18,970 nucleotides of DNA from contig JAENVT010000334.1 of the NCBI GenBank assembly GCA_016650435.1, positions 1 through 18,970 on the forward strand, given 5' to 3'. The stretch's first letter is position 1, and the number at the start of each line of letters is the position of its first letter. Below are positions 509 through 18,970 of this stretch, one piece after another. Below the pieces are notes generated by a model. The model did not search any database and was not told where the DNA came from. It saw only the letters and a list, made by a program, of their open reading frames with translations. The position numbers and the translations under genes are program-made. Source of the DNA: Ilumatobacteraceae bacterium (GTDB taxonomy: Bacteria > Actinomycetota > Acidimicrobiia > Acidimicrobiales > Ilumatobacteraceae).

Positions 509-662
509 GAACACCCGAACAAGTGTGGTAGCCCCACCTCCCGTCCTACTGGTCACTCAACGGGATCTTGCGGTGGTCGACAACCAGGGCTCGATGCGTC
601 GGGATTTGTGGGCTGCGAACAGTGTTAGGTTCGCTGTGATCGAGCGAAAACGGGGTCATGCT

Positions 663-1415
663 ATGAAACGATTCCGCTGGGCAGCGGTGAGCGCTATCAG
701 TGTTCTGACGGTGACGACAACCGCCGTTGCGATAACGAACGGCGTTGCAGATGGCGAGGGGCATCCGAATGTCGGAGGGTTGGTAAACGCTGTCCAGTAT
801 TCGGATGGCACCTGGATCTACTGCTCCGGAACGTTGATCTCCACGACGGTTTTCCTCACCGCCGCGCACTGCGGGGACCAAGGCGAACGAGTCCGAGTTA
901 CCTTCGACACCGCCTACCAAGCAGGCGATGCCGTTTACCCGGGCACGTTCAGGTCCGATCCTCTGTATTCGCAGTCGCAGAGCGACCCACATGACATCGC
1001 CGTCGTGGTGCTCGATCGACCGGTGAAGCGCATCACGCCGGCACTGCTGCCCAAACAAGGCGCGTTGTCGCAGCTGTCGTCCGCCCAGAAGTTCACATCC
1101 GTCGGATATGGCGCGTACCTGGTTACCAACGGTCCGGGCGGAAAGACGTATCTATACAACGACGTACGGATGACCGCCGTCGGAACGCTCAACGCCATCA
1201 ACCCCGCCTGGCTGCGCATCTCGATGAATGCCTCCACAGGAAACGGTGGAACGTGCTACGGCGACTCGGGCGGGCCCAACTTCCTGGGAAGCAGCAGCAC
1301 CATCGCAGCAACGACGATCACTGGCGACGCAGTATGCCGGGCGACCAACGTCGCGTACCGGTTGGACACACCTTCGGCGCGCGCGTTCCTCGCTGGATAC
1401 GTAGCCCTTCCCTAA
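663..1415 (+). CDS. Secreted trypsin-like serine protease (S1A family)
   Basis: This is a 250-residue chymotrypsin-fold protease with a complete catalytic triad: His69 in LTAAHC, Asp111 in HDIAVVVLD and Ser202 in GDSGGP. Cys54/Cys70 and Cys198/Cys225 sit where S1A enzymes form disulfides. The N-terminus is a Sec signal peptide (MKRFRW, hydrophobic core, AVA at 21-23), so the enzyme acts outside the membrane. The mature N-terminus would be ITNG at residue 24, equivalent to the activating IVGG of trypsin. The ATG at 663 was chosen because it begins the signal peptide; the frame stays open upstream to 444, but that extension has no export signal or family similarity. It is followed 12 nt later by the amine oxidase and is probably co-transcribed with it. 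The S1 pocket residue six before the serine is not a clear Asp (GGTCYGDSGG), so trypsin-like Arg/Lys specificity is not assured. Confidence 0.88.
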   Translation: MKRFRWAAVSAISVLTVTTTAVAITNGVADGEGHPNVGGLVNAVQYSDGTWIYCSGTLISTTVFLTAAHCGDQGERVRVTFDTAYQAGDAVYPGTFRSDPLYSQSQSDPHDIAVVVLDRPVKRITPALLPKQGALSQLSSAQKFTSVGYGAYLVTNGPGGKTYLYNDVRMTAVGTLNAINPAWLRISMNASTGNGGTCYGDSGGPNFLGSSSTIAATTITGDAVCRATNVAYRLDTPSARAFLAGYVALP

Positions 1416-5900: not shown

Positions 5901-6774
5901 GCCCGTCGAGCGCGAGCCATCCCCCAACACCGAGCACGCCGAGCTGACCGAGCATTGGGAGCAGCTGTAGTGTCGACGAGTAGCGCGAGTTGAATCGTGC
6001 CGTGCGCATTCGGGATTGATACAGCTCGAGCGAGCGGTCCATCAGGCGGGCGAACTCGCGATCCTCCTGGGCGAACGCCTTCACGACACGCACGCCGGTG
6101 ACTGCCTCGTCGACGACTCCGGCGACCGCGCCCGACAGACGCTGGTCGTTCCAGCTGGACGGGAAGATGCGGTTGCGGAACCGATAGGCGAGCCAGGCAA
6201 AGATCGGCACGAAGATTGCAATCACCAGGCCGAGAATCGGCGAGAGAACGAACATCACTGTCAGCGCAACGATCAGCAGCGTCAGGTTGGCCACCAGCAT
6301 TGGTACCGAGAAGAAGAACACCTGAATCAACGTCAAGTCCGCGGTGGCACGCGACATCACGTCGCCGACTGAAAGTTCGTCATGTCGCGAAAAATCCAGC
6401 TCGTAGAGATGACGATGGATCGCCAGTCGCAGATCATGCTGGATGCCGACGCTCACCTTGGCGCCGAGGTAGCGACGGCCATAGTTGGCCGTGAACCCGA
6501 CCATTCCGGTCGAGACAAGCACGAGGATCATCGGTCCGACCGGATGCTGCTTGGTGAGAATGCTGTGATCGACGATGACCTGCTGGATAAGGGGCAGCAG
6601 ACCGATCAACGTCTGGGCGACCACAGACAGAATCAGGGTCGCGATGACTGCCCCGCGATAGCGGTGGATGAACGGCCCAAGACGTCGGAGCCAACCGATG
6701 CCCGGGCCCGCGGGGCCGGGGCGCGTGTATGCCGGGTCAGTGAGCGGTGCGCGCAGCTTGAGGCGTCGAATCAT
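2992..6774 (-). CDS. Single-chain heteromeric ABC exporter (TMD-NBD-TMD-NBD)
   Basis: These 1260 residues hold two type-IV (MsbA/BmrCD-like) exporter halves fused in one chain. The membrane domains lie at about 35-325 and 695-985 and the ATPase domains at about 355-590 and 1013-1250, joined by a linker of about 100 residues. NBD1 has Walker A GASGSGKTT (Lys397), signature LSGGQ (495-499) and His551. Its Walker B is LVLDDATS with Asp520 where the catalytic Glu should be, and its Q-loop reads VFEES instead of VPQEP. NBD2 has Walker A Lys1056, Gln1098, Walker B ILDEATS with Glu1179, and His1210, but its signature is LSAGQ (1154-1158). This fits the asymmetric multidrug exporters in which one ATP site is degenerate. 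Its ATG overlaps the TGA of the MarR gene (ATGA), so the pair is one coupled operon. It is likely a MarR-regulated efflux pump in the cytoplasmic membrane; the substrate is unknown. Confidence 0.92.
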   Translation of the reverse strand: MIRRLKLRAPLTDPAYTRPGPAGPGIGWLRRLGPFIHRYRGAVIATLILSVVAQTLIGLLPLIQQVIVDHSILTKQHPVGPMILVLVSTGMVGFTANYGRRYLGAKVSVGIQHDLRLAIHRHLYELDFSRHDELSVGDVMSRATADLTLIQVFFFSVPMLVANLTLLIVALTVMFVLSPILGLVIAIFVPIFAWLAYRFRNRIFPSSWNDQRLSGAVAGVVDEAVTGVRVVKAFAQEDREFARLMDRSLELYQSRMRTARFNSRYSSTLQLLPMLGQLGVLGVGGWLALDGQITLGVFLAFASYMVQIITPVRILSGVLATAQQARAGSERVFELLDTQPRVTDKDDALPVVDPEGAVEFDDVTFGYADGPAALHGVSLTIQPGERVGLVGASGSGKTTLALLMARFYDPRSGTVRLDGIDVRDYEMSSLRSAVNVVFEESFLFSATIKENIAFARPDASDDDIEEAARVAQAHEFILGLSHGYDTMVGERGYTLSGGQRQRIALARAALANPAVLVLDDATSAIDARTEEAIHRSFEDELSSRTTILIAHRSSTLRLADRVLVLDEGRIVAEGTNAELWHSSQLYRELLTGPELELPDAFSEPIDVVSDDAWPQSGDRADRGSPRVELSTMFAGMSAGVGLHNLAGRTGLVAASPELLARVEALPPLHGDPEVDLDDATTLDGSSTLRRLAKRFRLPLFFVGLLVLIDAGTTLVGPLLIRHGLDSGVELHKGSVLVAMCIVFLAVQLLSWGNQVVELMHTSHTAERIMYSLRARTFGHLQRLSLDYYDKEMGGRIMTRMTTDVEALAQLLQQGLLLALTSFVSCFGVVGILLVLDVRLALAAFIVLPVQVLVTIWFQRGSRRSYLRSRDAISTVNAELQESLSGIRVTQSLGRDDNNAPRFAARSERYRDARLKSMQLMSIYFASSQLLSTIAKAIILWYGARLIGQGTLSTGLLIAFLLYLDQFFNPLQQLSGVFDQWIQSRVSLGRLDELLATPTSTPEIEHPIDPGRVAGTVQLQNVHFAYSTDAPEALRGVDLEIRPGESVALVGTTGAGKSTFVKLVARFYDPTGGRVLVDGTDLRDLQLHAFRRNIGYVPQEPFLFSGTIRSNIAYGRPGATDVEVERAARAVGAHDLVASLPDGYLTPVAETGRSLSAGQRQLLCLARAQLIDPSILILDEATSNLDLATEAEVQRAMNLASKGRTTLLIAHRLQTARNSSRIVVVDDGRIIEDGTHEDLLAADGRYADLWNAFDEARTTAI

Positions 6775-7223
6775 CGGCGGCCACCATCGGGTGCGACCAA
6801 TTCTTCCTTGGCCACACGTTGCAACCAGCGCTCGTCGAGCGCGTCGCCCAACGCGGCGAGTGCGTCGAGGACGCCTTCGGGATCAGCACATACCGCGAGC
6901 ACCTCTTCGAGCACGCCGCGAAACTCATCAGCCGCTCGTCGCAGTTGCGCTCGTCCCGAGTCCGTGATCGACAATCGAATCGAGCGGCGATCACCGTCGG
7001 GAATCTCGCGCGCCACGAAGCCGCGCTCGAACAGGCTGTCGATGATCGATGTCAACGTCGGCTTGGCCACCGAGACCCGGCTCGCCAGCAGACTTGCCCG
7101 TTCGTCGCCACCAGCCAGCAGACCCAGAACGCGATATTGCGGCAAGGTGAGCCCGGCGGCGGTGTTGCACTCCAACACACGAGAGAGCCGAGCGATGGTG
7201 AGGGTAGGGTCGTCTACGGTCAT
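6771..7223 (-). CDS. MarR-family transcriptional regulator
   Basis: This 150-residue protein has a typical MarR winged-helix layout. A helical N-terminus carries LTLPQYRVLGLLAG (about 26-39). The recognition region is ASLLASRVSVAKPTLTSIID. The wing RGFVAREIPDGDRRSIRLSITDSGR (about 68-92) contains the DxR(R) signature of the family, followed by dimerisation helices. Such proteins bind palindromes near their own promoter and release DNA when they bind a ligand or are oxidised. The gene overlaps the downstream exporter by 4 nt (ATGA), so it almost certainly controls that exporter. It is divergent from the cyclase gene, and a perfect TTCGA-N3-TCGAA palindrome lies 41 nt upstream of its start. The start ATG at 7223 has AAAGGCGG 6 nt upstream. 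Confidence 0.88.
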   Translation of the reverse strand: MTVDDPTLTIARLSRVLECNTAAGLTLPQYRVLGLLAGGDERASLLASRVSVAKPTLTSIIDSLFERGFVAREIPDGDRRSIRLSITDSGRAQLRRAADEFRGVLEEVLAVCADPEGVLDALAALGDALDERWLQRVAKEELVAPDGGRR

Positions 7224-7264
7224 GAGCGGCCGCCTTTGTCGAAGGTGATTCGGGTCTAGAATTG

Positions 7265-7277
7265 TTCGAGATTCGAA
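7265..7277. promoter_or_regulatory. Candidate MarR operator in the divergent intergenic region
   Basis: TTCGA-GAT-TCGAA is a perfect 5-bp-arm inverted repeat. It is framed by a direct repeat GAATTGTT at 7259-7266 and 7275-7282. This is the AT-richest patch of the 154-bp gap between the MarR and cyclase starts, where both promoters must lie. On the plus strand TAGGCT at 7283-7288 could be a -10; on the minus strand TAGACC (7258-7253) could be one. A MarR dimer bound here would block either. The site is inferred from symmetry and position only. Confidence 0.38.
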
Positions 7278-7366
7278 TTGTTAGGCTATCGCGTGGCCGG
7301 CCAGCGGCTTGGACTCTGGCCTTGATTTTTGGCCGAGTAGGGTCAAACCGCGTCAATCGGGGAGGC

Positions 7367-7372
7367 AGGTGA
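7367..7372 (+). promoter_or_regulatory. Ribosome binding site deciding the cyclase start
   Basis: AGGTGA, matching the core of the anti-Shine-Dalgarno complement, lies 5 nt before ATG 7378. The open frame reaches back to a TTG at 7309, which has no such site, and a GTG at 7369 overlaps this motif. Confidence 0.5.
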
Positions 7373-7377
7373 CGTCG

Positions 7378-10300
7378 ATGGCGATGAGCGACACGTACGT
7401 CGACCGATCCGAGGCCTATCTCGCTGGCGATCGCCGTCGTGCGCTCGCTGAAGGTCGGGAGCTCAACGACCGGGTGTGGGGCGCAGCCCTGTTCGCCGAC
7501 GTATCGGGCTTCACACCACTCACCGAGGCGCTAGCCAACGAACTCGGCCCGCAGCGAGGCGCCGAGGAATTGACGCATCATCTGAACCGGGTGTTCCACG
7601 CAGTCATCGACGACGTCGATCGCTATGGCGGCGAGGTCATCTACTTCGGAGGCGACGCAATTACCTGCTGGCTCGACGGCGACGACGGCAGACGCGGGGC
7701 GGCATGTGGCTTGGCGATCCAGCGAACGATGTCGTCGGTTGGCACCATCCGCACACCTGCCGGTACCGAGGTCGTACTCGCCATCAAGGTGGCGGTCGCG
7801 GTGGGAGACGCCCGGCGCTTCGTCGTCGGCGACCCCTCGATCCAATTGATCGACGTGCTTGCCGGCAGGCTGATCGACGAGCTGGCCGACGCCGAGCACA
7901 TGGCCGAGAAGGGTGACGTCGTGCTGGCCCGCTCCGCGCTCAATTCGATCGGCGACCACGTGAACATCCGCGAGCACAGGCAAGCAACTGATCCCGACGA
8001 GAGCCATGACGAAGCAACGGTCGGTGTCCTCGGCGGTCTCCGGATCCACGTCGACGAGGCGGAGCCCGCGCCGCCATCGGCTGCACTCGGCGAGGCGTTG
8101 GTGCGACCATGGATCTTGCCGGCGGTGTACGACCGGCTCGTCACTGGCCGCGGCGAGTTCTTGGCCGAACTTCGTTCTGCGTATCCGATGTTCATTCGTT
8201 TCGGTGGGATCGACTACGACAACGATCCCGATGCCGTTCAAAAGCTCGACCACTTCACGCAACGTGTCCAGCAAGTGCTCTCCGAGTTCGGCGGCAACCT
8301 GTTGCACGTCATCCTTGGCGACAAAGGTGCATATCTGTGTGCAGTGTTCGGCACGCCGCATGCCCACGAAGATGACGCCTCGCGGGCCGCAACGGCAGCG
8401 ATCGAGTTGTTGACGTTGGACAGAGAAACGGCAGCGACGGATCTGCAAGTAGGGATCTCACATGGCCGGGTTCGCAGCGGCGCGTACGGCCATCCGATGC
8501 GTCGCACGTTCACGTGCCTGGGCGACGCGGTCAACCTGTCGGCGCGGCTGATGTCGCAGGCTCCTCCGGGTCACGCCTATCTCAGCGAAGAGGTGCACCA
8601 GGCGTTGAGTGAACGGGTCGAGTGTCAACTCGTCGGCGATATCACCGTCAAGGGCAAGGCTGATCCGGTGCGTGTCCTCAGCATCGTCGGGCTGCGGCGA
8701 GGTCTGACCAAGCGGGAGGTCAGATATCCGCTGCCGATGGTCGGCCGCGATGCCGAGATGGCAGCGCTTGCCCAATCGCTCGATGAGGTGCTCGGCGGTG
8801 CCGGACGAGTGGTGGGGATTGCAGCAGAGGCCGGCCGCGGCAAGTCCCGGCTGATTGCCGAAGTTGTGCGCAACCTCGTCACCCGGGGTGTCACGGTGGC
8901 GTGGGGCGAAGCGCAGAACTTCGGCCGCACCACCAGCTATCTCGTGTGGCGCGATGTTTGGCGAACCCTGCTCGAGATGGACGACGACGCCACCGAAGCC
9001 TCGCAAGCCCGAGACCTGACGCGTCGGCTCCGGACAATCTCCGGCGACTACGCCCGCCGCGGTCCATTGCTCGGGCCCGTCGTCGGCATCGGCATCGACG
9101 ACAACGACCTCACGCGCACGTTCGATGCCAAGCTACGCAAGACGTCGTTGGAGTCACTGCTCGTCGACCTGCTCCGAGCGCGTGCCGACAACGGCGCGCT
9201 CGCCATCGTGCTCGAGGACTGCCACTGGATCGACGCCCTCTCCCGGGATCTCCTCGAAGAACTCGTGCTCGCCTCTGCATCACTCCCAGTGCTGTTCGTG
9301 CTCGCCTATCGACCTGCGGACGCACCGGGCGGAGGGCTGGGACTCGATCGAATCCCATACTTCCAGGAGCTTCATCTCGCCGAGCTGGCGGCAAACGACG
9401 CCCAGCTGGTGCTGCAGGCCAAGCTGTCGCAATTGTTCGGTGAGTCCGTGCGTCCAGCCAGCGAGCTCGTCGACTTCGTGCTCGAGAGGGCGCAGGGCAA
9501 CCCGTTCTACCTCGAGGAGTTGATCAACTACGTGCACGGTCGCGGGATCGACCCGGCCGAGCCGGCTGCCTTCAGGCACCTCGATGTTCCCGACACCCTG
9601 TTCCGGCTGGTCCAGAGCCGCATCGACATGTTGGACGAAGGGCCGCGAACGGCGCTGAAGGTCGCGAGCGTCGTTGGGCGAGCGTTCGAAGCACCGTTCG
9701 TGCAGGGCGTGTACCCCGACCTCGGCTCGCTTGACGACGTCGAGGCGCGGTTCGAAGCAGCACGTCAGGCCGACATCTTGAGGATCGATCGCGTCGAGGA
9801 TCGGTCGTGGCTCTTCCGTCACGTCGTGGCCCGCGATGTGGCCTACGACAGCTTGCCGTTCGCGATGCGAGCGCACTTGCACGACCGTGTCGGCAGGTAC
9901 CTCGAATCAGAAGGGCCGCAAGCGATCGAGCGAAATCTCGATCTGCTCGCGTATCACTACTGGCTCGGCGAGGACGACGACAAAAAGCGCGAGTACGCAG
10001 TGCGCGCGGGAATTGCGGCTCAGTCGCGATACGCCAACGATGCTGCCGCCGACTACTTCCAACGCGCACTACCTCTGGTGCCCGACGTTGAACGGGCAGG
10101 TGTGCTGCGCCGGCTGGGGAAGGTGCTCGAACTTCGCGGCGGCTGGGCTGACGCTGAGGCGACATACACACAAGCGATCGAGCTGTCGCGTCGCCTGGGA
10201 GACGTGACAGAACAGGCCCGGGCGCACACCGATCTTGCCGAGACACTGCGCAAGCAAGGTCGATTCGAAGACGCCCGCCAACAGTTGATCCTTGCCGGCG

Positions 10301-11079
10301 AAATGTTCTCTGGCCACGGCGACGACGCCGGGCTCGGTTTGGTCCTGCACCTCGAAGGAACACTCGCGTCGCAACAAGGCCACTACGACGACGCACGTAC
10401 TTCCTACGAACGGAGCCTCGAGATCCGCGAACGACTCGGCGACAGGGCCAGCATCGGCGGCCTGCTCAGCAACCTCGGATTGGTCGCCGAGTGCGTAGGA
10501 GATCTCGAACTGGCGCGCACGATGAACGAGCGCGCCCTGGCGATGCGCGAGGAATTGGGGGATCGGTGGCCGATCTGCGTCTCTCAGAACAACCTCGGGA
10601 TGATCGCGCTGCTGCAACTCGATTTTGCTGTCGCACAGATGCGCTTTGAAGAATCCATGCGCCTCGCCATCGAGATCGGAGACCGATGGATGGTCGCGGT
10701 CGGCCATCACAATCTCGGCAATGCCAACCTCGGGCTCGGCGAGCCCGGCACGGCCGGGGATGAATTCCTCCAAGCCCTGCAGGCGTACGAGGACTATGGC
10801 GACCTCTGGTCGGTTGCGCTGTTGGTCGAGGACATGGTCTTGCTGGCTTTGGCCAAGAACGAGATCGTCCACGCCACCGAACTCGTCGGCGCTGCGGACG
10901 CCCTCCGATCCCGACTGGAGGCACCGCGACCTCCTGCGCTCGCGACAACGCTCGAGGCGGCGTTGGCCGCAGTTCGGCCGCGACTCGGTGTCGACGAATC
11001 CGCGGCGCACGAACGCGGACTCGAATTCGACGCGGCTGCGTTGGGAGCACTACTCAGAGAGGTCGGACGCTCCACGTAA
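7378..11079 (+). CDS. Soluble-adenylyl-cyclase-like protein: tandem class III cyclase domains, P-loop ATPase, TPR tail
   Basis: This 1233-residue cytosolic protein has no membrane segments. Cyclase domain 1 (about 35-190) carries both metal-binding aspartates, Asp41 in FADVSGF and Asp93 in YFGGDAI, but lacks the NxxxR catalytic pair (Asp167/Asp171 instead). Cyclase domain 2 (about 270-440) has Arg274 at the first metal position but keeps Asp315 (LGDKG) and the pair Asn386/Arg390 (DAVNLSAR). The two therefore complement each other into one active site, as C1/C2 do in mammalian soluble adenylyl cyclase. A P-loop domain follows, with AEAGRGKS (Lys489, first Gly replaced by Ala) and a Walker B-like LEDCHWID (Glu613/Asp614). 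TPR-like helices fill about 905-1170 (e.g. LSNLGLVAE, NNLGMIALL, HNLGNANLG). The likely product is cAMP; cGMP is not excluded. Start: ATG 7378 with AGGTGA 5 nt upstream. It is divergent from MarR and followed at 91 nt by the secreted peptidase. Confidence 0.87.
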   Translation: MAMSDTYVDRSEAYLAGDRRRALAEGRELNDRVWGAALFADVSGFTPLTEALANELGPQRGAEELTHHLNRVFHAVIDDVDRYGGEVIYFGGDAITCWLDGDDGRRGAACGLAIQRTMSSVGTIRTPAGTEVVLAIKVAVAVGDARRFVVGDPSIQLIDVLAGRLIDELADAEHMAEKGDVVLARSALNSIGDHVNIREHRQATDPDESHDEATVGVLGGLRIHVDEAEPAPPSAALGEALVRPWILPAVYDRLVTGRGEFLAELRSAYPMFIRFGGIDYDNDPDAVQKLDHFTQRVQQVLSEFGGNLLHVILGDKGAYLCAVFGTPHAHEDDASRAATAAIELLTLDRETAATDLQVGISHGRVRSGAYGHPMRRTFTCLGDAVNLSARLMSQAPPGHAYLSEEVHQALSERVECQLVGDITVKGKADPVRVLSIVGLRRGLTKREVRYPLPMVGRDAEMAALAQSLDEVLGGAGRVVGIAAEAGRGKSRLIAEVVRNLVTRGVTVAWGEAQNFGRTTSYLVWRDVWRTLLEMDDDATEASQARDLTRRLRTISGDYARRGPLLGPVVGIGIDDNDLTRTFDAKLRKTSLESLLVDLLRARADNGALAIVLEDCHWIDALSRDLLEELVLASASLPVLFVLAYRPADAPGGGLGLDRIPYFQELHLAELAANDAQLVLQAKLSQLFGESVRPASELVDFVLERAQGNPFYLEELINYVHGRGIDPAEPAAFRHLDVPDTLFRLVQSRIDMLDEGPRTALKVASVVGRAFEAPFVQGVYPDLGSLDDVEARFEAARQADILRIDRVEDRSWLFRHVVARDVAYDSLPFAMRAHLHDRVGRYLESEGPQAIERNLDLLAYHYWLGEDDDKKREYAVRAGIAAQSRYANDAAADYFQRALPLVPDVERAGVLRRLGKVLELRGGWADAEATYTQAIELSRRLGDVTEQARAHTDLAETLRKQGRFEDARQQLILAGEMFSGHGDDAGLGLVLHLEGTLASQQGHYDDARTSYERSLEIRERLGDRASIGGLLSNLGLVAECVGDLELARTMNERALAMREELGDRWPICVSQNNLGMIALLQLDFAVAQMRFEESMRLAIEIGDRWMVAVGHHNLGNANLGLGEPGTAGDEFLQALQAYEDYGDLWSVALLVEDMVLLALAKNEIVHATELVGAADALRSRLEAPRPPALATTLEAALAAVRPRLGVDESAAHERGLEFDAAALGALLREVGRST

Positions 11080-11160
11080 TCGCTTGCGTCCTGTACCGAT
11101 TAGCGTTCTGGCCGTTCATGGGGATGGATGCGATGGTGTGTTCTCTCCTTGACGCCGATC

Positions 11161-11166
11161 GAGGAG
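11161..11166 (+). promoter_or_regulatory. Ribosome binding site deciding the C25-like peptidase start
   Basis: GAGGAG followed by ATC and then ATG 11170. The frame is open back to 11128, but only the 11170 start puts a signal peptide at the N-terminus. Confidence 0.5.
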
Positions 11167-11169
11167 ATC

Positions 11170-14100
11170 ATGCGCAACCAACCGTCTCGCCGCACTTCCC
11201 TACGGGGCCTTCACCTCGCGCTCGTCGCGTCGCTGTTGGCGCTTGTCACGCCCGTCATCGGAACGTCAGATGTTGCGAGTGCCGCAACGCCCACTCCATG
11301 GACGGCGAGCGGCCCCGCCAACTTCACGACTAACTCTGATGGCTTGGTCACCCCTGCACAGATGACCTACAACCTCCTCGACAATCCGCTTGGCACGCGG
11401 TTCACGGACAAGACGTGGACGTTTCAAACCACTGCGGTCGGCGATTCCACCGAGGTCGTGCCTTACACCTACACCGGCTTTCACGCCTACTTCGCGGTGA
11501 GGGTTCACCTTGACGCCTTCGTCATCCACAACGGCATCACCACCACAAACCTGGTTACCGGCGGGCCTGTCAACTGCTGCACGCCCCCTTCGGGCGGGTT
11601 CACCTATTCGGGCAACCATTCTTTCGTCGTGGCTGATGGTGACACCTACGGGTTCACGCTCGGCGGCGTCAACTACGACTCCAACCCAAGCTTCTACGGC
11701 ACCCTGACGCTCGCGCCGCCGCCTACGTCGCCGTTCACGGATCCCGCTGCGGTGGCCGCGAACACCTCATGGACCACGGCGGCTCCGCTCACAGGGGCCG
11801 GCGTCGACGGCACGCTGACGCAAGCCGGTGAGGTCCGCTGGTTCAAGTTCCCCATCCAGCCCGACAGCCAAGTGCAGGTCGACCTCAGCCACCTGGATCA
11901 GAACTTCGACCTCACCATGTTCCGCGACATCGGTCAGACCTTCTCGACGCTGACGTCGACCCAAGACCTCACCAAGCTGAGTGCGCAGTTCGCCGGTGAC
12001 GTGTTCAGCCCGTCGGTCTACTCACCCTCCGTCTACAGCCCGTCGGTCTACTCACCCTCCGTCTACTCGCCCTCGGTGTATTCGCCGTCCGTCTACAGCC
12101 CATCCGTGTACAGCCCGTCGGTCTACTCACCCTCCGTCTACAGCCCGTCGGTCTACTCGCCGTCCGTCTACTCACCGTCGGTCTACTCACCATCGGTCTA
12201 CAGCCCATCCGTGTACTCCCCGTCGGCTGCCTTCGTGCAGGCGTTCTCCAGCGCGCAGACGCGCAGCCTCATCGGCGTGTCGGCCAACGAAAACGCGGCC
12301 GCCGAATCCATTCGCACCGCGACGTGGAACAACACGGGCGATTTCTACGTACGCGTGCAAGGTCGCAACGGCGCGTTCTCGGCTACACCGTTCCACCTTG
12401 GATTGACAACGACCGGCGGGGAGTGCTCGGCCCCGCTCGACTCGTACAGTGCCCTGCCCACGATCGTCGGCACACCCGGTGCCAAACAAACGGTCATCCT
12501 CACCGACAGTTCGCGGTTCACCCCGCCGGCACCGGCACTGGTCACAAGGCTCCAGCAGTTGGAGCCCACGACCGGCGGCAAAGTCATCGACCTCAGCGGC
12601 AGTGCGCGCATCAATGCCCTGAACCTGCAGGCCGACCTCAACAAGGCCTGCCCATACGCGAAGAACCTCGTTGCCGAGGCCATTCGCGACGTCGTCAACT
12701 CGTATCGCGACAACAGCAACACACTGAAGTACGTCGTCCTGGCCGGCGGCGACTCCATCATCCCGTTCTTCAGATATGCCGACTCGGCGGGCATCGGACC
12801 GGAGTCCGACTTCGTCCCGCCCGCGCTCGACGCCAGTGCGTCGCAAGCGAGCTTGCGGCGCAACTACGTGCTCGGGCAGGACGCCTACGGCGCTCTCTCC
12901 GACCTGAACGTGAAAGGCGCGGTGATACCCGTCCCCGATCTCGCAGTCGGAAGACTGGTCGAAACGCCCACTGAGATCGGCGGCATGGTCGACGCATACC
13001 TCGGGCTCGGCCCGGCCGGTGTCTTGCCGCAGCCAACCTCGTCGTTGGTCACCGGTTACGACTTCCTCACGAGCGCGGCCAATTCCGTGCAGACCGACTT
13101 CGCCGCCGGTCTGGGCCCGACCGGACGTGCCGACTCGCTGATCACCGACCAAGGCGTCCCGACAACTCTCACGACGCTCGGAGCGCCAAGCCACGATCGC
13201 TCGTGGACCGCCGGCGATCTCTCCAACTCGCTGCTCGGCTCGCATCACGACCTGGTGTTCCTGGCAGGCCACTTCAGCGCCAACAGCGCGCTCGCCGCCG
13301 ACTACCAGACCAGCCTGTCGACACTTGATCTCGATGCCCATCCCAATTTGCTGACCAACTCGTTGGTGATCAGCGCCGGCTGCCACGCGGGATACAACCT
13401 GCTCGACGACGAGGCCGATCTGGCGCGCACGGTTGGGCTCGACTGGCCCGAAGCCATGGCCAGGCAGCGCGCCACCTTGATCGCCGGCACCGGCTATCAA
13501 TACGCCGATACTGACTTCGTCGCCTACAGCGCCAAGCTGTACACCCTGCTGGCGACCGAGTTGCGCAGCGGCTCGGGCGCGGTCCCCCTCGGCCAGGCCT
13601 TGGTCAACGCCAAGCAGGACTACCTCGCCAGCGTCTCCACCCTGGGTGGCATCGACCAAAAGGCGTTGATCGAATCAACGCTCTACGGCCTGCCGATGAC
13701 GGGCGTCAACCTTCCCGCGGGTCGCACGACAGACCCGGGGAACGGCGCGGGCATCGCGCCGACCTCGATCACGAGCAAGCCCGGCGTGGAGCTCGGTCTG
13801 AAGTCTGCACCGCTGACCCTTACTCCAACCCTCACACCGCCGCCTTCCCCGCTGAGGCAAGTTCTCGACACCAACTTGGCCCCGGTGGTTCCTACGGCCT
13901 ACTTCAACTGGTTCACCGGTCGCGACGGCGTTCAGTCTGCGCCGGCCCTGCCGGCTCTTCCCAAACAGATCGACGACGTGACAAGCACCACGGGAGAAGT
14001 ACTGCGCGGCGTGGGCTTCACCAGCGGCGCTTACACCGACGCACATGGCGTCACCCCGTTGACGGGCGCACCCACGACCGAACAGAACGGCATACACACC

Positions 14101-16212
14101 AGCTTCGTCTCGCCGGTCTTCTACCCGCAGAAGCTCGCCACCGTCAACTACTTCGGCGCCCTCGATGCCAACGGCGCCGATGGTCGCACGAAGTTGATCA
14201 CGACGCCCGTGCAGTACAGGTCGGAGCCGAACACGACGACCGACACCGAGCGCAAGTATTCGCAACTCGGCTTGGAGTTGTTCTACAGCAGCAACACCCA
14301 GACCTACGGCAACAACACGCCGTCGCTCGCGGCGCCGCCGTCGATCTCGGGGGTGAGCGATGCTCTGGCCACAAACGCGGTGACCGTCAGCGCACACGTC
14401 ACCGGCGACCTGTCTGCTGGCATTCAAAAGGCGTGGGTGACCTACACCGGCGAGGCCGGGCCATTGCACGGCTCATGGCAGTCGGCCCCTCTCGTGCAGG
14501 ACCCCGTCGACTCGACATTGTGGACCGGCACGATCCCGCTGGCGAGTGATCAGTTGGCGTCCGACGTGCGGTACATCGTGCAGGCGGTCAACGGCGTCGG
14601 CCTGGTCGGCCTCGACAACAACCTCGGCGACGGTTACACCCCGGGCGTGCCGGTTGGCGTCGTCATCCCGCCGGCCATACCGACGACAACGAGTCTTGAT
14701 CTCGTCAACCCGAGCAGCGCCGTTTCCGGCACGACCGTCACCGTTGCAGCGACGACGAATGCGCCGGCGGGTAGCACCATCACGTTCGCTCTCGGCACCG
14801 CGTCGATCGACGCATCGACAACTGCCAGCGGGCGAGCAAGCGCGACGTTGCCGCTGCAAGATGCGGTCGGCACCTACACCCTGTCGGCTTCGTACGGCGG
14901 CGACTCGACACACAGAGCCTCGGCGGACACACATTCTTTCGGCGTCACCAAGGTGGGAACCGCGTTGACGCTCTCCGCAGCGACGGCCACGACCGTCAGC
15001 GCCGTCCTCTCGCGCACCGCACCGAGCATCCCGTTGCCGCAGCAGACGGTCTACTTCTCGGTGACCGGTCCGGCCACGAGCCCGGTCACCCGACTCTTCA
15101 CCGCCAGCACCGATCCACAAGGACGGGCCCAACTCCCAACGGGCACGCTGGCAGACGGCACCTACACGGTCTCGGCAGAGTTCCGCGGCACACCATCGAC
15201 GTTCCTGTCGAGCACTCCGGTCGCACCCGTGGTCTTCACGCTCGACTCCACCGGGCCTGCCCTGACTGTCCTGAAGCTGACTCCCGCGTCGATCGTCCTG
15301 GGTACCACGACGAAGCTCACGGCTTTGGTTGCCGACCCGAGAGCCGTGTCGCGCGTCGAGTACTTCGTCGGCACCGACCCCGGTGTCGGCCTCGCTACGT
15401 CAGCAACCGTCACGGCAGGTGCCCTCGCGGCGACCTTCGGCGCGACGTTGCCGGTCGGCAGCTACACCGTGGGGGTCCGCGCCCGCGACGGCTTGGGCAA
15501 CTGGTCGGCAACCTCGACCACGACGTTGACCGTGACGCAGATCGGTGTGTCGTTCAGCACCAGCGCCAACAGATCGGGAGCCGTCGATTTCGCTGGTGCG
15601 ACAGTCTCTGGCAACATCGCCGTGTTCGCTACCCCGGCTGCGAACACAAGTCGTGTTGCGATCGTCGGGTTCTACATCGACGATCCCAATCGAACTAGCC
15701 TGCCGTACTGGGTGCAGTTGCTCAGTCCCTACGACCTCGGCGGGACGTTGAAGAACGGCACGGCCAACCTGTTCGACACGCGACTGCTGCCCAACGGGAC
15801 ACACACGCTGACGCTCGAAGTCCTTCGGTTGAACGGCGCCCTCGAACGACGAACCGTGTCGTTCACCGTCAGCAACCCGGCACCAACGGTGACTCAGAAA
15901 CTCCAGGTCAGCAGCAGTGCAACGCGTAGCAGCGCGGCCGATCTCAACGGGCGTACGCTCACCGGCTCGGTCGCTATTTTCGTTACACCGACGACCTCGG
16001 TGAAGTCGGTTGAGTTCTGGCTGGACAAGGTCACTCTCGTGCCGCGCTCCACCGACTCGGCAGCTCAGTTCGACTTCAATGGCACGGCCAACAACGGACA
16101 GGCGGTGTTGTTCAACGTTGGCACCTTGGCCGCCGGTTCCCACCGGGTCTTTGCTCGCATCACCTACAGCAACGGAACGACCGCGGTCATTTCGAGCACG
16201 TTCACGAAATAG
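11170..16212 (+). CDS. Large secreted gingipain-like (C25, clan CD) cysteine peptidase with SPSVY repeats and Ig-like modules
   Basis: 1680 residues. The signal peptide (about 1-38) has SRRTSLRG and a hydrophobic core ending near ASAA; Sec is likely, Tat possible. Residues 40-185 form an unassigned beta-rich domain. Residues 197-414 resemble a bacterial pre-peptidase (PPC) domain: EVRWFKFPIQ, FDLTMF, then TGDFYVRVQGRNG. It is interrupted at 280-349 by fourteen SPSVY repeats. The peptidase domain (about 440-850) shows YVVLAGGDSIIPFF, DLAVGRLVE, His701 in VFLAGHF and Cys738 in VISAGCHAGY, a plausible clan CD His/Cys dyad 37 residues apart. Residues 850-1165 are unassigned. Ig-like modules follow (about 1172-1450), then two homologous modules of about 105 residues (1458-1568, 1576-1680). 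There is no C-terminal anchor, LPXTG or membrane helix, so the protein is probably released or held by its Ig modules. It ends 11 bp from the converging ABC gene. Fold-level call; substrate unknown. Confidence 0.8.
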   Translation: MRNQPSRRTSLRGLHLALVASLLALVTPVIGTSDVASAATPTPWTASGPANFTTNSDGLVTPAQMTYNLLDNPLGTRFTDKTWTFQTTAVGDSTEVVPYTYTGFHAYFAVRVHLDAFVIHNGITTTNLVTGGPVNCCTPPSGGFTYSGNHSFVVADGDTYGFTLGGVNYDSNPSFYGTLTLAPPPTSPFTDPAAVAANTSWTTAAPLTGAGVDGTLTQAGEVRWFKFPIQPDSQVQVDLSHLDQNFDLTMFRDIGQTFSTLTSTQDLTKLSAQFAGDVFSPSVYSPSVYSPSVYSPSVYSPSVYSPSVYSPSVYSPSVYSPSVYSPSVYSPSVYSPSVYSPSVYSPSVYSPSAAFVQAFSSAQTRSLIGVSANENAAAESIRTATWNNTGDFYVRVQGRNGAFSATPFHLGLTTTGGECSAPLDSYSALPTIVGTPGAKQTVILTDSSRFTPPAPALVTRLQQLEPTTGGKVIDLSGSARINALNLQADLNKACPYAKNLVAEAIRDVVNSYRDNSNTLKYVVLAGGDSIIPFFRYADSAGIGPESDFVPPALDASASQASLRRNYVLGQDAYGALSDLNVKGAVIPVPDLAVGRLVETPTEIGGMVDAYLGLGPAGVLPQPTSSLVTGYDFLTSAANSVQTDFAAGLGPTGRADSLITDQGVPTTLTTLGAPSHDRSWTAGDLSNSLLGSHHDLVFLAGHFSANSALAADYQTSLSTLDLDAHPNLLTNSLVISAGCHAGYNLLDDEADLARTVGLDWPEAMARQRATLIAGTGYQYADTDFVAYSAKLYTLLATELRSGSGAVPLGQALVNAKQDYLASVSTLGGIDQKALIESTLYGLPMTGVNLPAGRTTDPGNGAGIAPTSITSKPGVELGLKSAPLTLTPTLTPPPSPLRQVLDTNLAPVVPTAYFNWFTGRDGVQSAPALPALPKQIDDVTSTTGEVLRGVGFTSGAYTDAHGVTPLTGAPTTEQNGIHTSFVSPVFYPQKLATVNYFGALDANGADGRTKLITTPVQYRSEPNTTTDTERKYSQLGLELFYSSNTQTYGNNTPSLAAPPSISGVSDALATNAVTVSAHVTGDLSAGIQKAWVTYTGEAGPLHGSWQSAPLVQDPVDSTLWTGTIPLASDQLASDVRYIVQAVNGVGLVGLDNNLGDGYTPGVPVGVVIPPAIPTTTSLDLVNPSSAVSGTTVTVAATTNAPAGSTITFALGTASIDASTTASGRASATLPLQDAVGTYTLSASYGGDSTHRASADTHSFGVTKVGTALTLSAATATTVSAVLSRTAPSIPLPQQTVYFSVTGPATSPVTRLFTASTDPQGRAQLPTGTLADGTYTVSAEFRGTPSTFLSSTPVAPVVFTLDSTGPALTVLKLTPASIVLGTTTKLTALVADPRAVSRVEYFVGTDPGVGLATSATVTAGALAATFGATLPVGSYTVGVRARDGLGNWSATSTTTLTVTQIGVSFSTSANRSGAVDFAGATVSGNIAVFATPAANTSRVAIVGFYIDDPNRTSLPYWVQLLSPYDLGGTLKNGTANLFDTRLLPNGTHTLTLEVLRLNGALERRTVSFTVSNPAPTVTQKLQVSSSATRSSAADLNGRTLTGSVAIFVTPTTSVKSVEFWLDKVTLVPRSTDSAAQFDFNGTANNGQAVLFNVGTLAAGSHRVFARITYSNGTTAVISSTFTK
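12007..12216 (+). repeat. Fourteen 15-bp tandem units encoding (Ser-Pro-Ser-Val-Tyr)x14
   Basis: Fourteen in-frame 15-bp units follow GTGTTC directly; a degenerate fifteenth (SPSAA) follows at 12217. Protein identity is absolute across the units, but the DNA differs by synonymous changes. The first serine is AGC in units 1, 3, 7, 8, 10 and 14 and TCN in the others. Units 1-2, 3-4 and 8-9 share an identical 30-bp sequence, suggesting past duplication in pairs. The array is coding and interrupts the PPC-like domain of the peptidase. Confidence 0.95.
15541..16209 (+). repeat. Two homologous C-terminal modules in the secreted peptidase
   Basis: At the protein level, residues 1458-1568 and 1576-1680 share the same order of motifs. 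SANRSGAVDFAGATVSGNIAVF aligns with SATRSSAADLNGRTLTGSVAIF at the start. FYIDD aligns with FWLDK in the middle, and GTANLFDTRLLPNGTH with GQAVLFNVGTLAAGSH near the end. They look like a duplicated beta-sandwich that may bind carbohydrate or serve as a spacer; the function is not shown by the sequence. Confidence 0.65.
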
Positions 16213-16223
16213 CCCATATCGAG

Positions 16224-17213
16224 TCAGCGATGACCGCGGATGAGTGAAGGGATCTTGTCGTCGCCGACGAGGTTCCTGAAGGCTTTGACGCTGTAGCCGG
16301 TCAGCGTCGACGCCATCCTGGCGCGCACGGTCGCGGCGCGATCGAGACCGAACAGGGGACCCATCTCCCCGACGTAGTCGCCGGCACTGATGATGCTCAG
16401 CAGCACCCGGCCCTCGGGCGATTCGCGCAAGACCTCCAGTTCACCTGAGTCGACCACGTAGATGACGTCGCTCGGGTCGCCTTGCTCGAACAGCAGCGAT
16501 CCGGCGGCAAGATTCACAGTGCGCGAGGTCGCGTCGTCGGGGACAAAGTGCGGGCGCATCTCGATGATCTGGTCAGCGAGAGCGAGCAGCCGTTCGTCGT
16601 GGGTCGCAACGACGACAGCCCGACCGCCGTCGGTAAGGCCGCGAATGATTCGAAGGATCCCCTCGACCTGGACGTAGTCCAAATGAGCGGTTGGCTCGTC
16701 GGCCAGCACGAGCAATGGATCGAGGGCAAGTGCCCGAGCGATCGCAACACGTTGCTGCTGCCCGCCGCTGAGGCTGTTCGGGCGGTGCGTCAGTCGATCT
16801 CCCAGCCCAACGCTCTCGAGCAAACCCACCGCTTTGTCTCGTGCCTCGCGGCGGGCGACGCCAGCCGAGCGCATCGGCACCGACACGTTCTCGACCGCGG
16901 TCAGGCTGGGAACCAGATTGAAGGCCTGGAACACGACACCGACGCCGCGTTGGCGATAGTTGGTGAGCGCCTTGCCCGCCAGTGTGGTGACGTCGGTGCC
17001 GGCATAGGAAATCTTGCCGGCCGTCGGCTTCAAGATGCCGCCCAAACACGACAACAACGTCGTCTTTCCACAACCCGAAGGACCGAGCAGAAGCGCCAAC
17101 GAGCCCGCAGGAACGGTGCAGCTGAAATCGTCGAGCGGCCGCACCGTGTAGTCGCCTTTGGTGAACTCGACCGTCAGGTTTTCGATGACGAGGTCGGCCA
17201 CCGTTTCTGTCAT
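16224..17213 (-). CDS. MacB/LolD-type ABC ATPase with C-terminal cyclic-nucleotide-binding domain
   Basis: 329 residues. The ATPase domain (about 8-222) is complete: Walker A GPSGCGKTT (Lys50), Q-loop Gln in VVFQAFNL (about 96), signature LSGGQ (148-152), Walker B LLVLADEPT (Asp172/Glu173) and His205. It belongs to the MacB/LolD/FtsE-like group. The tail (about 226-315) is a cNMP-binding beta-barrel with a phosphate-binding cassette GEMGPLFGLDRAATVRA. Glu283 and Arg292 correspond to the residues that hold the ribose and cyclic phosphate in CRP and PKA, so binding looks possible. An ATPase and a cNMP sensor are thus joined in one chain. The ATG at 17213 was chosen over one 18 codons upstream because GGAGG lies 5 nt before it; the permease stop ends 1 nt before this ATG. 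It energises the permease at 17215-18243. Convergent with the secreted peptidase. Confidence 0.9.
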   Translation of the reverse strand: MTETVADLVIENLTVEFTKGDYTVRPLDDFSCTVPAGSLALLLGPSGCGKTTLLSCLGGILKPTAGKISYAGTDVTTLAGKALTNYRQRGVGVVFQAFNLVPSLTAVENVSVPMRSAGVARREARDKAVGLLESVGLGDRLTHRPNSLSGGQQQRVAIARALALDPLLVLADEPTAHLDYVQVEGILRIIRGLTDGGRAVVVATHDERLLALADQIIEMRPHFVPDDATSRTVNLAAGSLLFEQGDPSDVIYVVDSGELEVLRESPEGRVLLSIISAGDYVGEMGPLFGLDRAATVRARMASTLTGYSVKAFRNLVGDDKIPSLIRGHR

Positions 17214-17214
17214 C

Positions 17215-18243
17215 TCATCCTCCAAACGCGGTCGCGGGATCGATACGTGCCGTCCGTCGTAGGGCAACCGAGCAGGCGATGAGACCGACGACGACGGTAA
17301 TCACGGGCAGCAGCAGGTAGCCACTCGCCGGAATCTCGACGTTCAGCGGGAACAGCGGCGCCAGAACCGTGGCGAGGATCGCTGCCAGAACCGCAGCGGC
17401 CAACGACAGCATCACGGCCTGCACGGCGAGGCCAACGCCGATGGCAGCTGTCGATGTTCCGGTTGCCTTGAATACAGCGAAATCACGGGTGCGCTCGAGC
17501 GCCTGAAGGTACAGCACTGATCCGACGACGATCGCGGCGACGAGCCACAGCAGCAAGCGAACGAAGCTGATCGAAGATCGTGCAGCCTTCAACGGCCGCA
17601 ACACATCGTCTTTGACGTCCTTGTTCGACATCACCTTCAAGTCGGCGGGCACGAACGTGGGGACCTCGGAGAACAGCATCGCGGTGGCAAGCGGCTGCCC
17701 CGCCACTGCCACCGTTTGTGCATCGGCCAACAGGATGTAGACCAGGGGGATACCGGCGAACAGGCTTTGACCGGAAATCGTGCCGACTACTCGAAAGTGT
17801 TGGCCACCGAAGGAGACCGTGTCGCCGACCGAAGCACCGGGAAGGCTCCGATCAACAACGACCTGACCAGAGCTTGTGAGATCTGCTCCGCGTGAGGCCT
17901 GAGGAGACCCGAGAGCGCCTGGCTCTACTCCCATCACGATGATGTCGCGAACGGTTGGCCCATCCTGGATTGTTTCGCGAAGCACCATGACCGACGATCC
18001 GCCGATGTTCGCTGCCTCGGACGTCGGAATCGGGCTGAAGGAGTTGAACGGCCCGGATGCGTCCGACGCAACCGCCCACCGCTCGGCGCCGATGGAGTCG
18101 AGCGTTCGATCGACCTCGGTCGAGAACGAGGTTGCCAGACCGGTCATGATCAGACCCATCGCGAAAACCAGCGCAACGCCGATCATGGCGATCACGAATC
18201 GTTTCCAACGCCATTGGAGATCGCGCAGAGCGGCTCTCACCAT
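17215..18243 (-). CDS. MacB/DevC-like FtsX-family ABC permease
   Basis: 342 residues with the four-helix layout of the MacB/DevC family. One helix near the N-terminus (about 16-38, RFVIAMIGVALVFAMGLIM) is followed by an extracytoplasmic domain of about 185 residues. Three C-terminal helices follow (about 228-248, 270-297 and 309-328), ending in the usual ALRRTARIDPATAFGG. These permeases work mechanically from the outer face, moving lipids, peptides or proteins rather than importing solutes. The partner ATPase follows after a single nucleotide, with its GGAGG overlapping the last codons here, so the two are translationally linked. No periplasmic adaptor (MacA/DevB-like) gene is in view. The start ATG at 18243 has GGAAG 5 nt upstream. 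The gene is divergent from the small ORF at 18374. Substrate unknown. Confidence 0.87.
   Translation of the reverse strand: MVRAALRDLQWRWKRFVIAMIGVALVFAMGLIMTGLATSFSTEVDRTLDSIGAERWAVASDASGPFNSFSPIPTSEAANIGGSSVMVLRETIQDGPTVRDIIVMGVEPGALGSPQASRGADLTSSGQVVVDRSLPGASVGDTVSFGGQHFRVVGTISGQSLFAGIPLVYILLADAQTVAVAGQPLATAMLFSEVPTFVPADLKVMSNKDVKDDVLRPLKAARSSISFVRLLLWLVAAIVVGSVLYLQALERTRDFAVFKATGTSTAAIGVGLAVQAVMLSLAAAVLAAILATVLAPLFPLNVEIPASGYLLLPVITVVVGLIACSVALRRTARIDPATAFGG
17219..17223 (-). promoter_or_regulatory. Ribosome binding site embedded in the permease stop region
   Basis: GGAGG on the minus strand lies 5 nt before the ATPase ATG at 17213 and is formed by the last glycine codons of the permease. 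It fixes the ATPase start and suggests translational coupling. Confidence 0.6.
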
Positions 18244-18373
18244 GTTTGCTTCCAGTGGCTTGGGTCAAGAACGATGCGTGACTGTAACCCGACGGCATCT
18301 CGCGGCCTGCTGCTGTTTCAGGAATCTGATCATCGGGAAATCTCACGCGACCAATCGTGAACGGAGTCTGCAG

Positions 18374-18730
18374 ATGGGAACCGAGAAGCAGAAGGCGCAA
18401 GCCCACAAGAACATCAAGAAGGCCGAGGCCGCCTCGGCCAAGAAAGGGCCCGCCAAGAAGAAGACACCGTCCGGTGGAATGACTGAAGCCGCTCGGGATC
18501 GGCTGAGCGACGGTAAGTTCGCCTTCCCCGACGATCGCAAGGAGCCGCTGAACGACGCCAAGCATGTTCGCAACGCAATCGCCCGGTTCGATCAAGTCGA
18601 AGATGTCAGCGACGCTGAACGGGCCCGCGCGTGGAAGCGGATCAAGGCCGCTGCCAAGAAGTTCGACGTCGAGATCGAAGCAACCGATTGGCGCGAACTG
18701 ATGCGAGGTGGCAAGTCGAGCCGCCGCTGA
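18374..18730 (+). CDS. Small lysine-rich protein, DUF6582-like
   Basis: 118 residues, strongly basic. The first 35 residues are Lys/Ala-rich (e.g. KKGPAKKKTPSGG) and look disordered or nucleic-acid-binding. The folded part (about 36-112) contains LSDGKFAFPDDRKEPLND, HVRNAIARFDQV and WKRIKAAAKKFDV. This resembles the small DUF6582 module (FALP...YPI.D..HARNALARV...), a family of unknown function; the match is from memory of the motif. The ATG at 18374 has GGAG 7 nt upstream. The frame is open further back to 17939, but that stretch is antisense to the permease and resembles no protein. The gene is divergent from the permease across 130 bp and followed at 94 bp by an exported protein. Confidence 0.75.
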   Translation: MGTEKQKAQAHKNIKKAEAASAKKGPAKKKTPSGGMTEAARDRLSDGKFAFPDDRKEPLNDAKHVRNAIARFDQVEDVSDAERARAWKRIKAAAKKFDVEIEATDWRELMRGGKSSRR

Positions 18731-18824
18731 ACCCGAGATTTTGCCTGGGCACAACCTTGCCGAAATGAACTCCTGAACCCCTCACGACGACACTCCGCTG
18801 CGTAGGAGCGTCGAGAGGATCGGG

Positions 18825-18970
18825 ATGTCGACAACAAAGCGCGGTCGGTACACATCGGGAATGCTGCTTCGGGCAATGGCAACCGTCGCCATGTGCGCGT
18901 TGAGTCTGGTGTGGATCGATTCGGGTGGACGTGTTGAAGCGGCAGATCTGGTCGTCTCGACGCCCTATCC
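18825..18970 (+). CDS. Exported protein, N-terminal part (cut by right window edge)
   Basis: Only 48 codons are visible. The start ATG has GAGAGGA 5 nt upstream. The sequence begins with a basic n-region (MSTTKRGRYTSG), a hydrophobic core (about 13-31) and a likely signal peptidase site near VEA-ADL, so the product is exported. The mature protein opens with ADLVVSTPYP. That resembles the first strand of NEW3/alpha-galactosidase-associated beta-sandwich proteins, but ten residues are too few to assign a family. Confidence 0.6.
   Translation, partial: MSTTKRGRYTSGMLLRAMATVAMCALSLVWIDSGGRVEAADLVVSTPY

What the first reader, a model, noticed from the sequence alone, without database searches (positions are those of the whole stretch)
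16224..17213. ABC ATPase of a MacB-like transporter fused to a cyclic-nucleotide-binding domain
A complete LolD/MacB-type ATPase continues into a CRP/PKA-type cNMP barrel that keeps the Glu (283) and Arg (292) needed for ribose and cyclic-phosphate binding, nine residues apart as in PKA. cNMP domains usually sit on transcription factors, kinases or channels. Here cAMP or cGMP could directly gate a mechanotransmitting exporter.
Basis: partly seen in the sequence, partly recalled or inferred. Interest (0 to 1): 0.7.

Follow-up and report, generated by a model that had tools for sequence, protein, structure and literature searches.

The report
Cyclic-nucleotide-sensing ABC transporter ATPase
A bacterium, probably an actinobacterium, carries a membrane-transporter motor protein with what looks like a working built-in receptor for a cyclic nucleotide such as cAMP; mycobacteria and other actinobacteria have relatives, and I found no test of what the receptor does.

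Summary
ORF 16224-17213 (-) is a 329-residue MacB/LolD-type ABC ATPase (Pfam E 1.5e-33) followed by a cyclic-nucleotide-binding (CNB) domain (E 4.5e-18). Glu283 and Arg292 align without gap to the PKA phosphate-binding cassette. Glu283 is kept in 120 of 120 and Arg292 in 119 of 120 best-listed sequences, window included, and in 36 and 37 of 37 more divergent rows. The motor motifs are intact and a FtsX/MacB-type permease gene ends 1 base before it. The pair is no oddity: 37 sampled genomes carry the fusion, one clade on an ATPase-only tree, and it matches Mycobacterium tuberculosis Rv2563/Rv2564, where PF00027 on Rv2564 is already in print (PMC4886424). Added here: a strong link to a second CNB protein, a patatin/NTE-type lipase (9 of 12 NTE_Ploop genes within 4 kb), a weaker excess of nearby cyclase genes (9 of 37 genomes within 15 kb, 2.3 expected), and in this window and two relatives a giant protein between cyclase and transporter. 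Most likely cAMP tunes an envelope transporter. Binding and gating are inferred. A base-capping helix seems missing, so the ligand is open.

The parts
16224..17213 (-). ATPase subunit: ABC nucleotide-binding domain (residues about 8-220) fused to a C-terminal cyclic-nucleotide-binding domain (about 230-320)
16320..16370 (-). Phosphate-binding cassette, residues 282-298, with Glu283 (16365-16367) and Arg292 (16338-16340)
17058..17084 (-). Walker A of the ATPase, residues 44-52
   Evidence: Gly44, Gly49 and Lys50 in 35 of the 35 rows with letters there, of 38 aligned
16749..16772 (-). ABC signature, residues 148-155
16689..16712 (-). Walker B with Glu173, residues 168-175
17215..18243 (-). Partner permease, 342 aa, FtsX C-terminal domain plus MacB-like periplasmic core domain; ends 1 base before the ATPase start codon
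   Evidence: Pfam FtsX E 3.5e-11, MacB_PCD E 5.2e-07; hydropathy; a match near the fusion in 34 of 37 loci
7309..11079 (+). Candidate signal source: tandem class III cyclase with AAA_16 and TPR region; best solved relative is adenylate cyclase type 10 (soluble adenylyl cyclase)
11128..16212 (+). Giant protein with a C25-peptidase-like core and Ig-like repeats, secreted by my reading of its start; a match lies near the pair in two relatives too

Best explanation
The protein is the ATPase subunit of a two-gene type VII (MacB/LolD/FtsX kind) ABC transporter whose activity is set by a cyclic nucleotide, most likely cAMP, bound to the C-terminal domain of each ATPase chain. Shown by sequence: intact ATPase motifs, a phosphate-binding cassette that is nearly invariant, and a permease gene in the same run. 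Inferred: that cAMP binds, that binding changes ATPase dimerisation or hydrolysis, and that the substrate is an envelope lipid, lipoprotein or secreted protein. The recurrent partner, a patatin/NTE-type lipase with its own CNB domains, suggests a cAMP-controlled envelope lipid or surface-protein process.
For: Pfam and PKA/CRP matches. Cassette Glu 120 of 120, Gly and Arg 119 of 120 listed sequences, window included; Gly 37, Glu 36, Arg 37 of the 37 rows with letters in the divergent set, window included, while many other columns of the domain vary. A permease match near the fusion in 34 of 37 loci. The fused ATPases form one side of a branch, 99% SH-aLRT, on a tree from ATPase columns alone. 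9 of 12 NTE_Ploop matches in the 37 genomes lie within 4 kb of the fusion gene, 0.045 expected. A class III cyclase match lies within 15 kb of the fusion in 9 of 37 genomes, 2.3 expected, and 36 of 37 genomes have one somewhere. The window's own cyclase keeps residues expected of a working site (residue roles recalled).
Against: No binding, ATPase or transport datum for this family was seen in anything read here. The chain ends soon after the barrel; the CNB-only model shows two short helices after it with falling confidence, so the long helix that caps the base in CRP and PKA (recalled) seems absent, leaving ligand choice and the switching step open. One divergent member (L111, genome G248) has Ala for the cassette Glu, and G248 is the one genome of 37 without a cyclase match. 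The whole-protein model is poor (pTM 0.50). 24 of 37 loci show no CNB-lipase near the pair, the window among the places without one.
Confidence: 0.68

Rival explanations
1. The CNB domain binds a ligand other than cAMP (cGMP, a pyrimidine cyclic nucleotide or another small molecule), or takes its base cap from the permease or the second ATPase chain, so that cAMP is not the signal.
For: Short C-terminus after the barrel. Ser or Thr follows the cassette Arg in 31 of 37 rows, a position tied to cGMP preference in other CNB proteins (recalled).
Against: In the window itself that residue is Ala, as in the PKA sequences aligned. Nearest solved relatives by sequence are PKA regulatory subunits; of the 50 fold matches listed most are CRP-type proteins, many titled as cAMP complexes; the window cyclase aligns best with an adenylyl cyclase.
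Confidence: 0.17
2. The domain no longer binds a nucleotide and is a structural add-on that helps dimerise the ATPase or dock a partner.
For: CNB families with non-canonical cassettes exist (PMC2246266, passages); L111 lacks the Glu.
Against: Cassette residues are nearly invariant while many other columns vary.
Confidence: 0.1
3. It is a glutamine importer ATPase, as the mycobacterial relatives are named (GlnQ).
For: Annotation history reported in PMC7761784, which also states more than 70% identity of the mycobacterial ATPases to glutamine-type ones (passages); the NCBIfam GlnQ model matches at E 1.3e-44, but with 152 bits against a 379-bit cut-off.
Against: Permease is FtsX/MacB-type; among the 25 of 191 NCBIfam matches shown, FtsE, DevA, MacB and LolD models score higher than GlnQ and none reaches its cut-off; no solute-binding protein among the window ORFs scanned; the same review notes that the membrane part resembles MacB.
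Confidence: 0.02
4. The neighbourhood is an anti-phage signalling system of the Pycsar kind (cyclase plus CNB effector).
For: PADLOC matches: CNB domain to TIR-type effector and PycC models, E 7e-05 to 6e-04; window cyclase to PycC, E 9e-11; the CNB-lipase of G556 to PycTIR, E 3e-17, and to phospholipase effectors, E 1e-06. The ATPase part also matches mad3 (E 1.5e-28), mad8 and AriA models, which I read as shared ATPase fold.
Against: The Pycsar-type matches cover only the CNB, cyclase and patatin folds; no TIR or PycTM part was found in the five sequences scanned; the CNB-ABC family is one clade with a steady permease partner.
Confidence: 0.03

Closest known systems
M. tuberculosis Rv2563/Rv2564 and Rv0072/Rv0073 ('GlnQ' type VII ABC pairs)
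   Same: Separate MacB-like permease and ATPase (PMC7761784, passages); Rv2564 carries PF00027 and is paired with cyclase-like Rv2561 and near CNB protein Rv2565 (PMC4886424, section 9). Mycobacterium-labelled homologues P0103 and P0111 are 62 and 61% identical to the window protein with the same two domains.
   Different: The Rv sequences themselves were not compared here. No CNB-lipase was seen next to the window pair, and the window cyclase is of sAC type, while Rv2561 belongs to the set related to DUF2652 in that paper.
MacB / LolCDE / FtsEX type VII ABC transporters
   Same: ATPase closest to these by family models, PDB sequence and fold; FtsX-type permease.
   Different: ATPase is a separate chain (unlike MacB) and bears a CNB domain, absent from MacB, LolD and FtsE as I know them.
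'AAA_Atpase' CNB family of PMC2246266
   Same: A CNB domain with an ATPase, several members with an ABC-transporter-like membrane region (passages).
   Different: That family has a variable cassette Arg by the paper's table; here it is nearly invariant.
OpuA with CBS domains sensing c-di-AMP
   Same: A ligand-sensing domain on the ATPase chain of an ABC transporter (PMC10710835, passages).
   Different: Different domain, messenger and transporter type.

Membership tests
Cyclic-nucleotide-binding domain family (PF00027) | Profile match above curated cut-off | tested here: met
   65.5 bits against 27.5
Cyclic-nucleotide-binding domain family (PF00027) | Phosphate-binding cassette with Gly-Glu and Arg | tested here: met
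Cyclic-nucleotide-binding domain family (PF00027) | Beta-barrel fold like cAMP-bound CNB structures | tested here: met
   CNB-only model mean pLDDT 84.4; MtbCRP with cAMP is rank 2, TMq 0.77
Cyclic-nucleotide-binding domain family (PF00027) | C-helix that caps the base | tested here: inconclusive
   Two short helices only; last two blocks of the model have pLDDT 80 and 58
Cyclic-nucleotide-binding domain family (PF00027) | Binds a cyclic nucleotide | not testable with these tools
   needs purified protein
Type VII (MacB/LolD/FtsX) ABC transporters | ATPase of the LolD/MacB/FtsE group | tested here: met
   scores below each equivalog cut-off, so the group and not one named member
Type VII (MacB/LolD/FtsX) ABC transporters | Permease with FtsX domain and MacB-type periplasmic core | tested here: met
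   Pfam matches above cut-off; four strong hydrophobic stretches and one borderline
MacB proper | ATPase and membrane part in one chain, with a MacA adaptor | tested here: not met
   Separate chains; no adaptor among the window ORFs scanned by Pfam
Rv2564-type ATPase family | ATPase + PF00027 next to a MacB-like permease | tested here: met
   identity with Rv2564 itself not measured
Soluble adenylyl cyclase (ADCY10) type, for window 7309-11079 | Tandem C1-C2 cyclase, P-loop ATPase, TPR-like tail | tested here: met
   the tail of ADCY10 itself is recalled
Soluble adenylyl cyclase (ADCY10) type, for window 7309-11079 | Bicarbonate-site Lys in C1 (recalled: K95) | tested here: not met
   Tyr at the aligned position
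Pycsar | PycC cyclase with PycTM or PycTIR effector | tested here: not met
   Fold-level matches only; no TIR or PycTM part in the five sequences scanned

The most novel reading that the evidence does not exclude
A self-contained cAMP envelope module: a soluble-adenylyl-cyclase-like enzyme makes cAMP, which in the same cell switches two receptors at once, an NTE-type lipase and a type VII ABC transporter ATPase, to release, process or anchor a giant surface protein with a C25-like peptidase core. In genome G556 all five genes lie in one co-directional run.
Probability: 0.25. Interest if true: 0.68.

Novelty: new member of a known kind. Interest (0 to 1): 0.45.

Why it matters
If cAMP does gate this transporter, it would be a direct second-messenger switch on an ABC exporter motor, outside transcription and channels, and would reframe an actinobacterial transporter family that in mycobacteria is still filed as a glutamine system. 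The review of mycobacterial ABC systems that I searched for the words holds 0 matches for 'cyclic nucleotide' and for 'cNMP'. The tight link to a second CNB protein gives a concrete pathway to test.

Tried and rejected
Genome scan with the whole protein used the only scan; of its 80 loci only L015 had a match running past residue 300. Searching the window's own genome failed: none is held. Plasmid records: no match at E 1e-15. PDB sequence match for the C25-like core: none at E up to 1. Pycsar: rejected. Promoter and terminator scan of 16100-18970: nothing above shuffles. Literature: Rv0073 with cyclic terms, 0 papers; searches for CNB with FtsX, MacB or Rv3239c, 0 or off-topic; a paper recalled as McCue et al. 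2000 on mycobacterial cNMP proteins is not held, so prior annotation may go further than I saw.

A reading changed on checking. From the list, cut short at 150 rows, I had judged nearby cyclases to be no more common than density predicts. Searches gave the full lists for all 25 genomes, 9 of 37 genomes have a cyclase match within 15 kb of the fusion against 2.3 expected (P 2.5e-4), 5 within 10 kb against 1.75 (P 0.03), 3 within 5 kb against 1.0 (P 0.08). The distances were chosen after the fact and genomes are related, so the P values flatter the link. I raised the odds of the novel case from 0.22 to 0.25 for this.

Limits. In some searches only the top 12 or 9 candidates per genome were scored, so counts are lower bounds. 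The NTE_Ploop test was chosen after linked lipases had been seen; 11 of its 12 matches pass the family cut-off; the 9 linked ones come partly from one subclade, so P 2e-20 is overstated. In the tree, a short search, 34 of 37 fused loci were used (L104, L156, L159 left out as cut or partial) and 40 of the 80 loci (odd numbers). L015 was labelled unfused there but carries a CNB domain; it falls outside the main clade. L112 has no CNB columns because its contig ends. The C25 match appears only when residues 440-900 are scanned alone, not in the whole-protein scan at E up to 1, and homologue P0209, which the database marks with PF01364, did not show it in my scan.

Full report
Observation. The minus-strand ORF 16224-17213 encodes 329 residues. 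Pfam assigns ABC_tran to residues 27-176 and cNMP_binding to 233-316, both well above cut-off. The ATPase motifs are complete. The CNB part aligns without gap through the cassette with the PKA type I regulatory subunit, its best solved relative by sequence. A CNB-only AlphaFold model from 77 sequences has mean pLDDT 84.4 and pTM 0.75; of the 50 fold matches listed most are CRP-type proteins, many titled as cAMP complexes. The two-domain model is poor (pTM 0.50), so nothing is claimed on how the domains meet. The model was not docked with a nucleotide.

Selection on the pocket. Among the 120 best-listed sequences of 7998 matches, window included, all with both Pfam domains, Glu283 is kept in 120, Gly282 in 119 and Arg292 in 119; P0099 has an aberrant tail that covers its Arg exception. 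In 37 further loci plus the window, 37 rows have letters there: Gly 37, Arg 37, Glu 36 (L111 has Ala); L112 ends before the domain. Many other columns of the domain vary. This is the main reason to expect a bound ligand.

Partner and family. The permease 17215-18243 ends 1 base before the ATPase start (sequence printed) and matches FtsX and MacB_PCD. A permease match lies near the fusion in 34 of 37 loci; of the three without one, L104 and L159 are cut by contig ends, and L156 (genome G626) has none at E 1e-6 although its contig goes on. Sampled prevalence: 12 of 296 genomes of the phylum of G001, 25 of 395 of the class of G114 (G114 in both), 4 of 66 in the class of G098 (one new), and 3 of 24, 1 of 3 and 1 of 5 in other classes (none new): 37 distinct genomes. 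On a tree of ATPase columns the 35 fused rows (34 loci and the window) lie on one side of a branch, SH-aLRT 99, so one old fusion can explain them. L015, from a record titled Kouleothrix aurantiaca (Chloroflexota), carries a CNB domain too, falls elsewhere on that tree, is followed by what I read as an FtsX-like permease, and has the cassette Arg displaced by one: best read as a second fusion.

Neighbours. A patatin-type protein lies near the pair in 13 of 37 loci, with CNB domains shown by Pfam in 11: L110 and L112; L141, L142, L145, L147, L154, L155, L157, L158, L160; L109 and L161 by tblastn only. As a genome-wide check, PF24179 (NTE_Ploop) has 12 matches in the 37 genomes, one a genome, and 9 lie within 4 kb of the fusion; 0.045 expected, P about 2e-20 under uniform placement and independence, which is overstated. 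No such gene was seen next to the window pair; in G649, one of the two nearest sampled relatives, it lies on another contig.

Signal source. Window 7309-11079 has cyclase, AAA_16 and TPR matches. Its best solved relative is adenylate cyclase type 10, aligned over both cyclase domains, E about 2e-27; two C1 aspartates and the C2 Lys, Thr, Asn and Arg (roles recalled) are kept, whereas a C1 Lys that I recall as part of the bicarbonate site is Tyr. Over the 37 genomes a cyclase match lies within 15 kb of the fusion in 9 (G098, G039, G468, G389, G377, G556, G697, G654, G582), against 2.3 expected from each genome's density and contig ends; P 2.5e-4 at that distance, 0.03 at 10 kb, 0.08 at 5 kb. 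So cyclases are nearer than chance, about four-fold at 15 kb, but most loci lack one.

Ordered arrangement. In L164 (genome G556) one strand carries in order cyclase 4269-7970 (51% to the window's), a giant protein 8112-13439 (47% over the best stretch), a CNB-lipase 13467-15278, permease (match 15298-16290) and the CNB ATPase (match 16331-17260). In L163 (genome G468) a more distant tandem cyclase (28%), a giant protein (28% over part), permease and ATPase follow in the same order. In the window the pair is inverted relative to these. A giant-protein match near the pair was found in 2 of 37 loci (L139, L154), so this arrangement recurs but is uncommon. In L109 a tandem cyclase gene lies next to the permease on the opposite strand.

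Giant protein. The core at residues 440-900, scanned alone, matches Peptidase_C25 (E 5.3e-11); the whole-protein scan did not list it. His715 and Cys752, the likely dyad by analogy with clan CD peptidases (recalled), are kept in 120 of 120 listed homologues. The family is broad, 1122 proteins at E below 0.001 among 7964 candidates, with names from several actinobacterial groups; whether those genomes hold the ATPase was not examined. It is a possible client or partner, no more.

Prior art. PMC4886424 (section 9 read) lists Rv2564 and Rv2565 with PF00027 as partners of cyclase-like Rv2561. PMC7761784 (passages) describes Rv2563/64 and Rv0072/73 as MacB-like pairs of doubtful function, with no match for 'cyclic nucleotide' or 'cNMP'. 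PMC2246266 (passages) lists CNB domains with ATPases, several with an ABC-transporter-like membrane region. PMC10710835 (passages) cites CNB domains on MFS transporters and CBS domains on OpuA. No passage read here reports a test of ligand binding or gating for this family; the searches are in one open-licence library.

Mechanism. Most likely cAMP binds the CNB domain of each ATPase chain and changes how the ATPase dimer closes or turns over, setting an envelope transporter of MacB type. A precedent for a type VII pair working with an esterase appears in the PDB list as YbbAP-TesA (entry title only). Steps shown: domains, intact motifs, conservation, partner genes. Steps inferred: ligand, direction of the effect, substrate. 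The apparent lack of a base-capping helix is a real gap and may mean that the cap comes from another chain.

Noticed in passing
window 11128-16212 (+): 1694-aa protein with 14 exact SPSVY repeats (residues 294-363), a C25-peptidase-like core with His715/Cys752 kept in 120 of 120 listed homologues, and Ig-like repeats.
   Followed up: partly
window 7309-11079 (+): Bacterial protein colinear with adenylate cyclase type 10 over both cyclase domains, plus AAA_16 and TPR, with the recalled bicarbonate-site Lys replaced by Tyr.
   Followed up: partly
L164 4269-17272: Five co-directional genes: cyclase, giant C25-like protein, CNB-patatin lipase, permease, CNB ATPase.
   Followed up: yes
L015 5334-8890: ATPase-CNB fusion in a Chloroflexota record, followed by what reads as an FtsX-like permease split across two frames; cassette Arg displaced by one.
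   Followed up: partly
L111 9204-10331: Family member with Ala in place of the cassette Glu, in the one of 37 genomes with no class III cyclase match.
   Followed up: no
G654:C171:38929-39369: A cyclase match in a 392-aa frame about 0.1 kb from the end of the CNB-ATPase match, on the other strand.
   Followed up: no
window 2992-6774 (-) and 6771-7223 (-): Single 1260-aa chain with two ABC_membrane and two ABC_tran stretches, preceded by a MarR-type regulator gene that overlaps it by 4 bases.
   Followed up: no
window 651-1415 (+) and 1428-2999 (+): Trypsin-like protease followed by a flavin amine oxidase with a twin-arginine-like stretch near its start (the signal reading is mine).
   Followed up: no
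P0013 and P0136: A CNB-ATPase homologue and a giant-protein homologue both reported from a jgi contig of 34200 bases, which suggests linkage in another relative.
   Followed up: no
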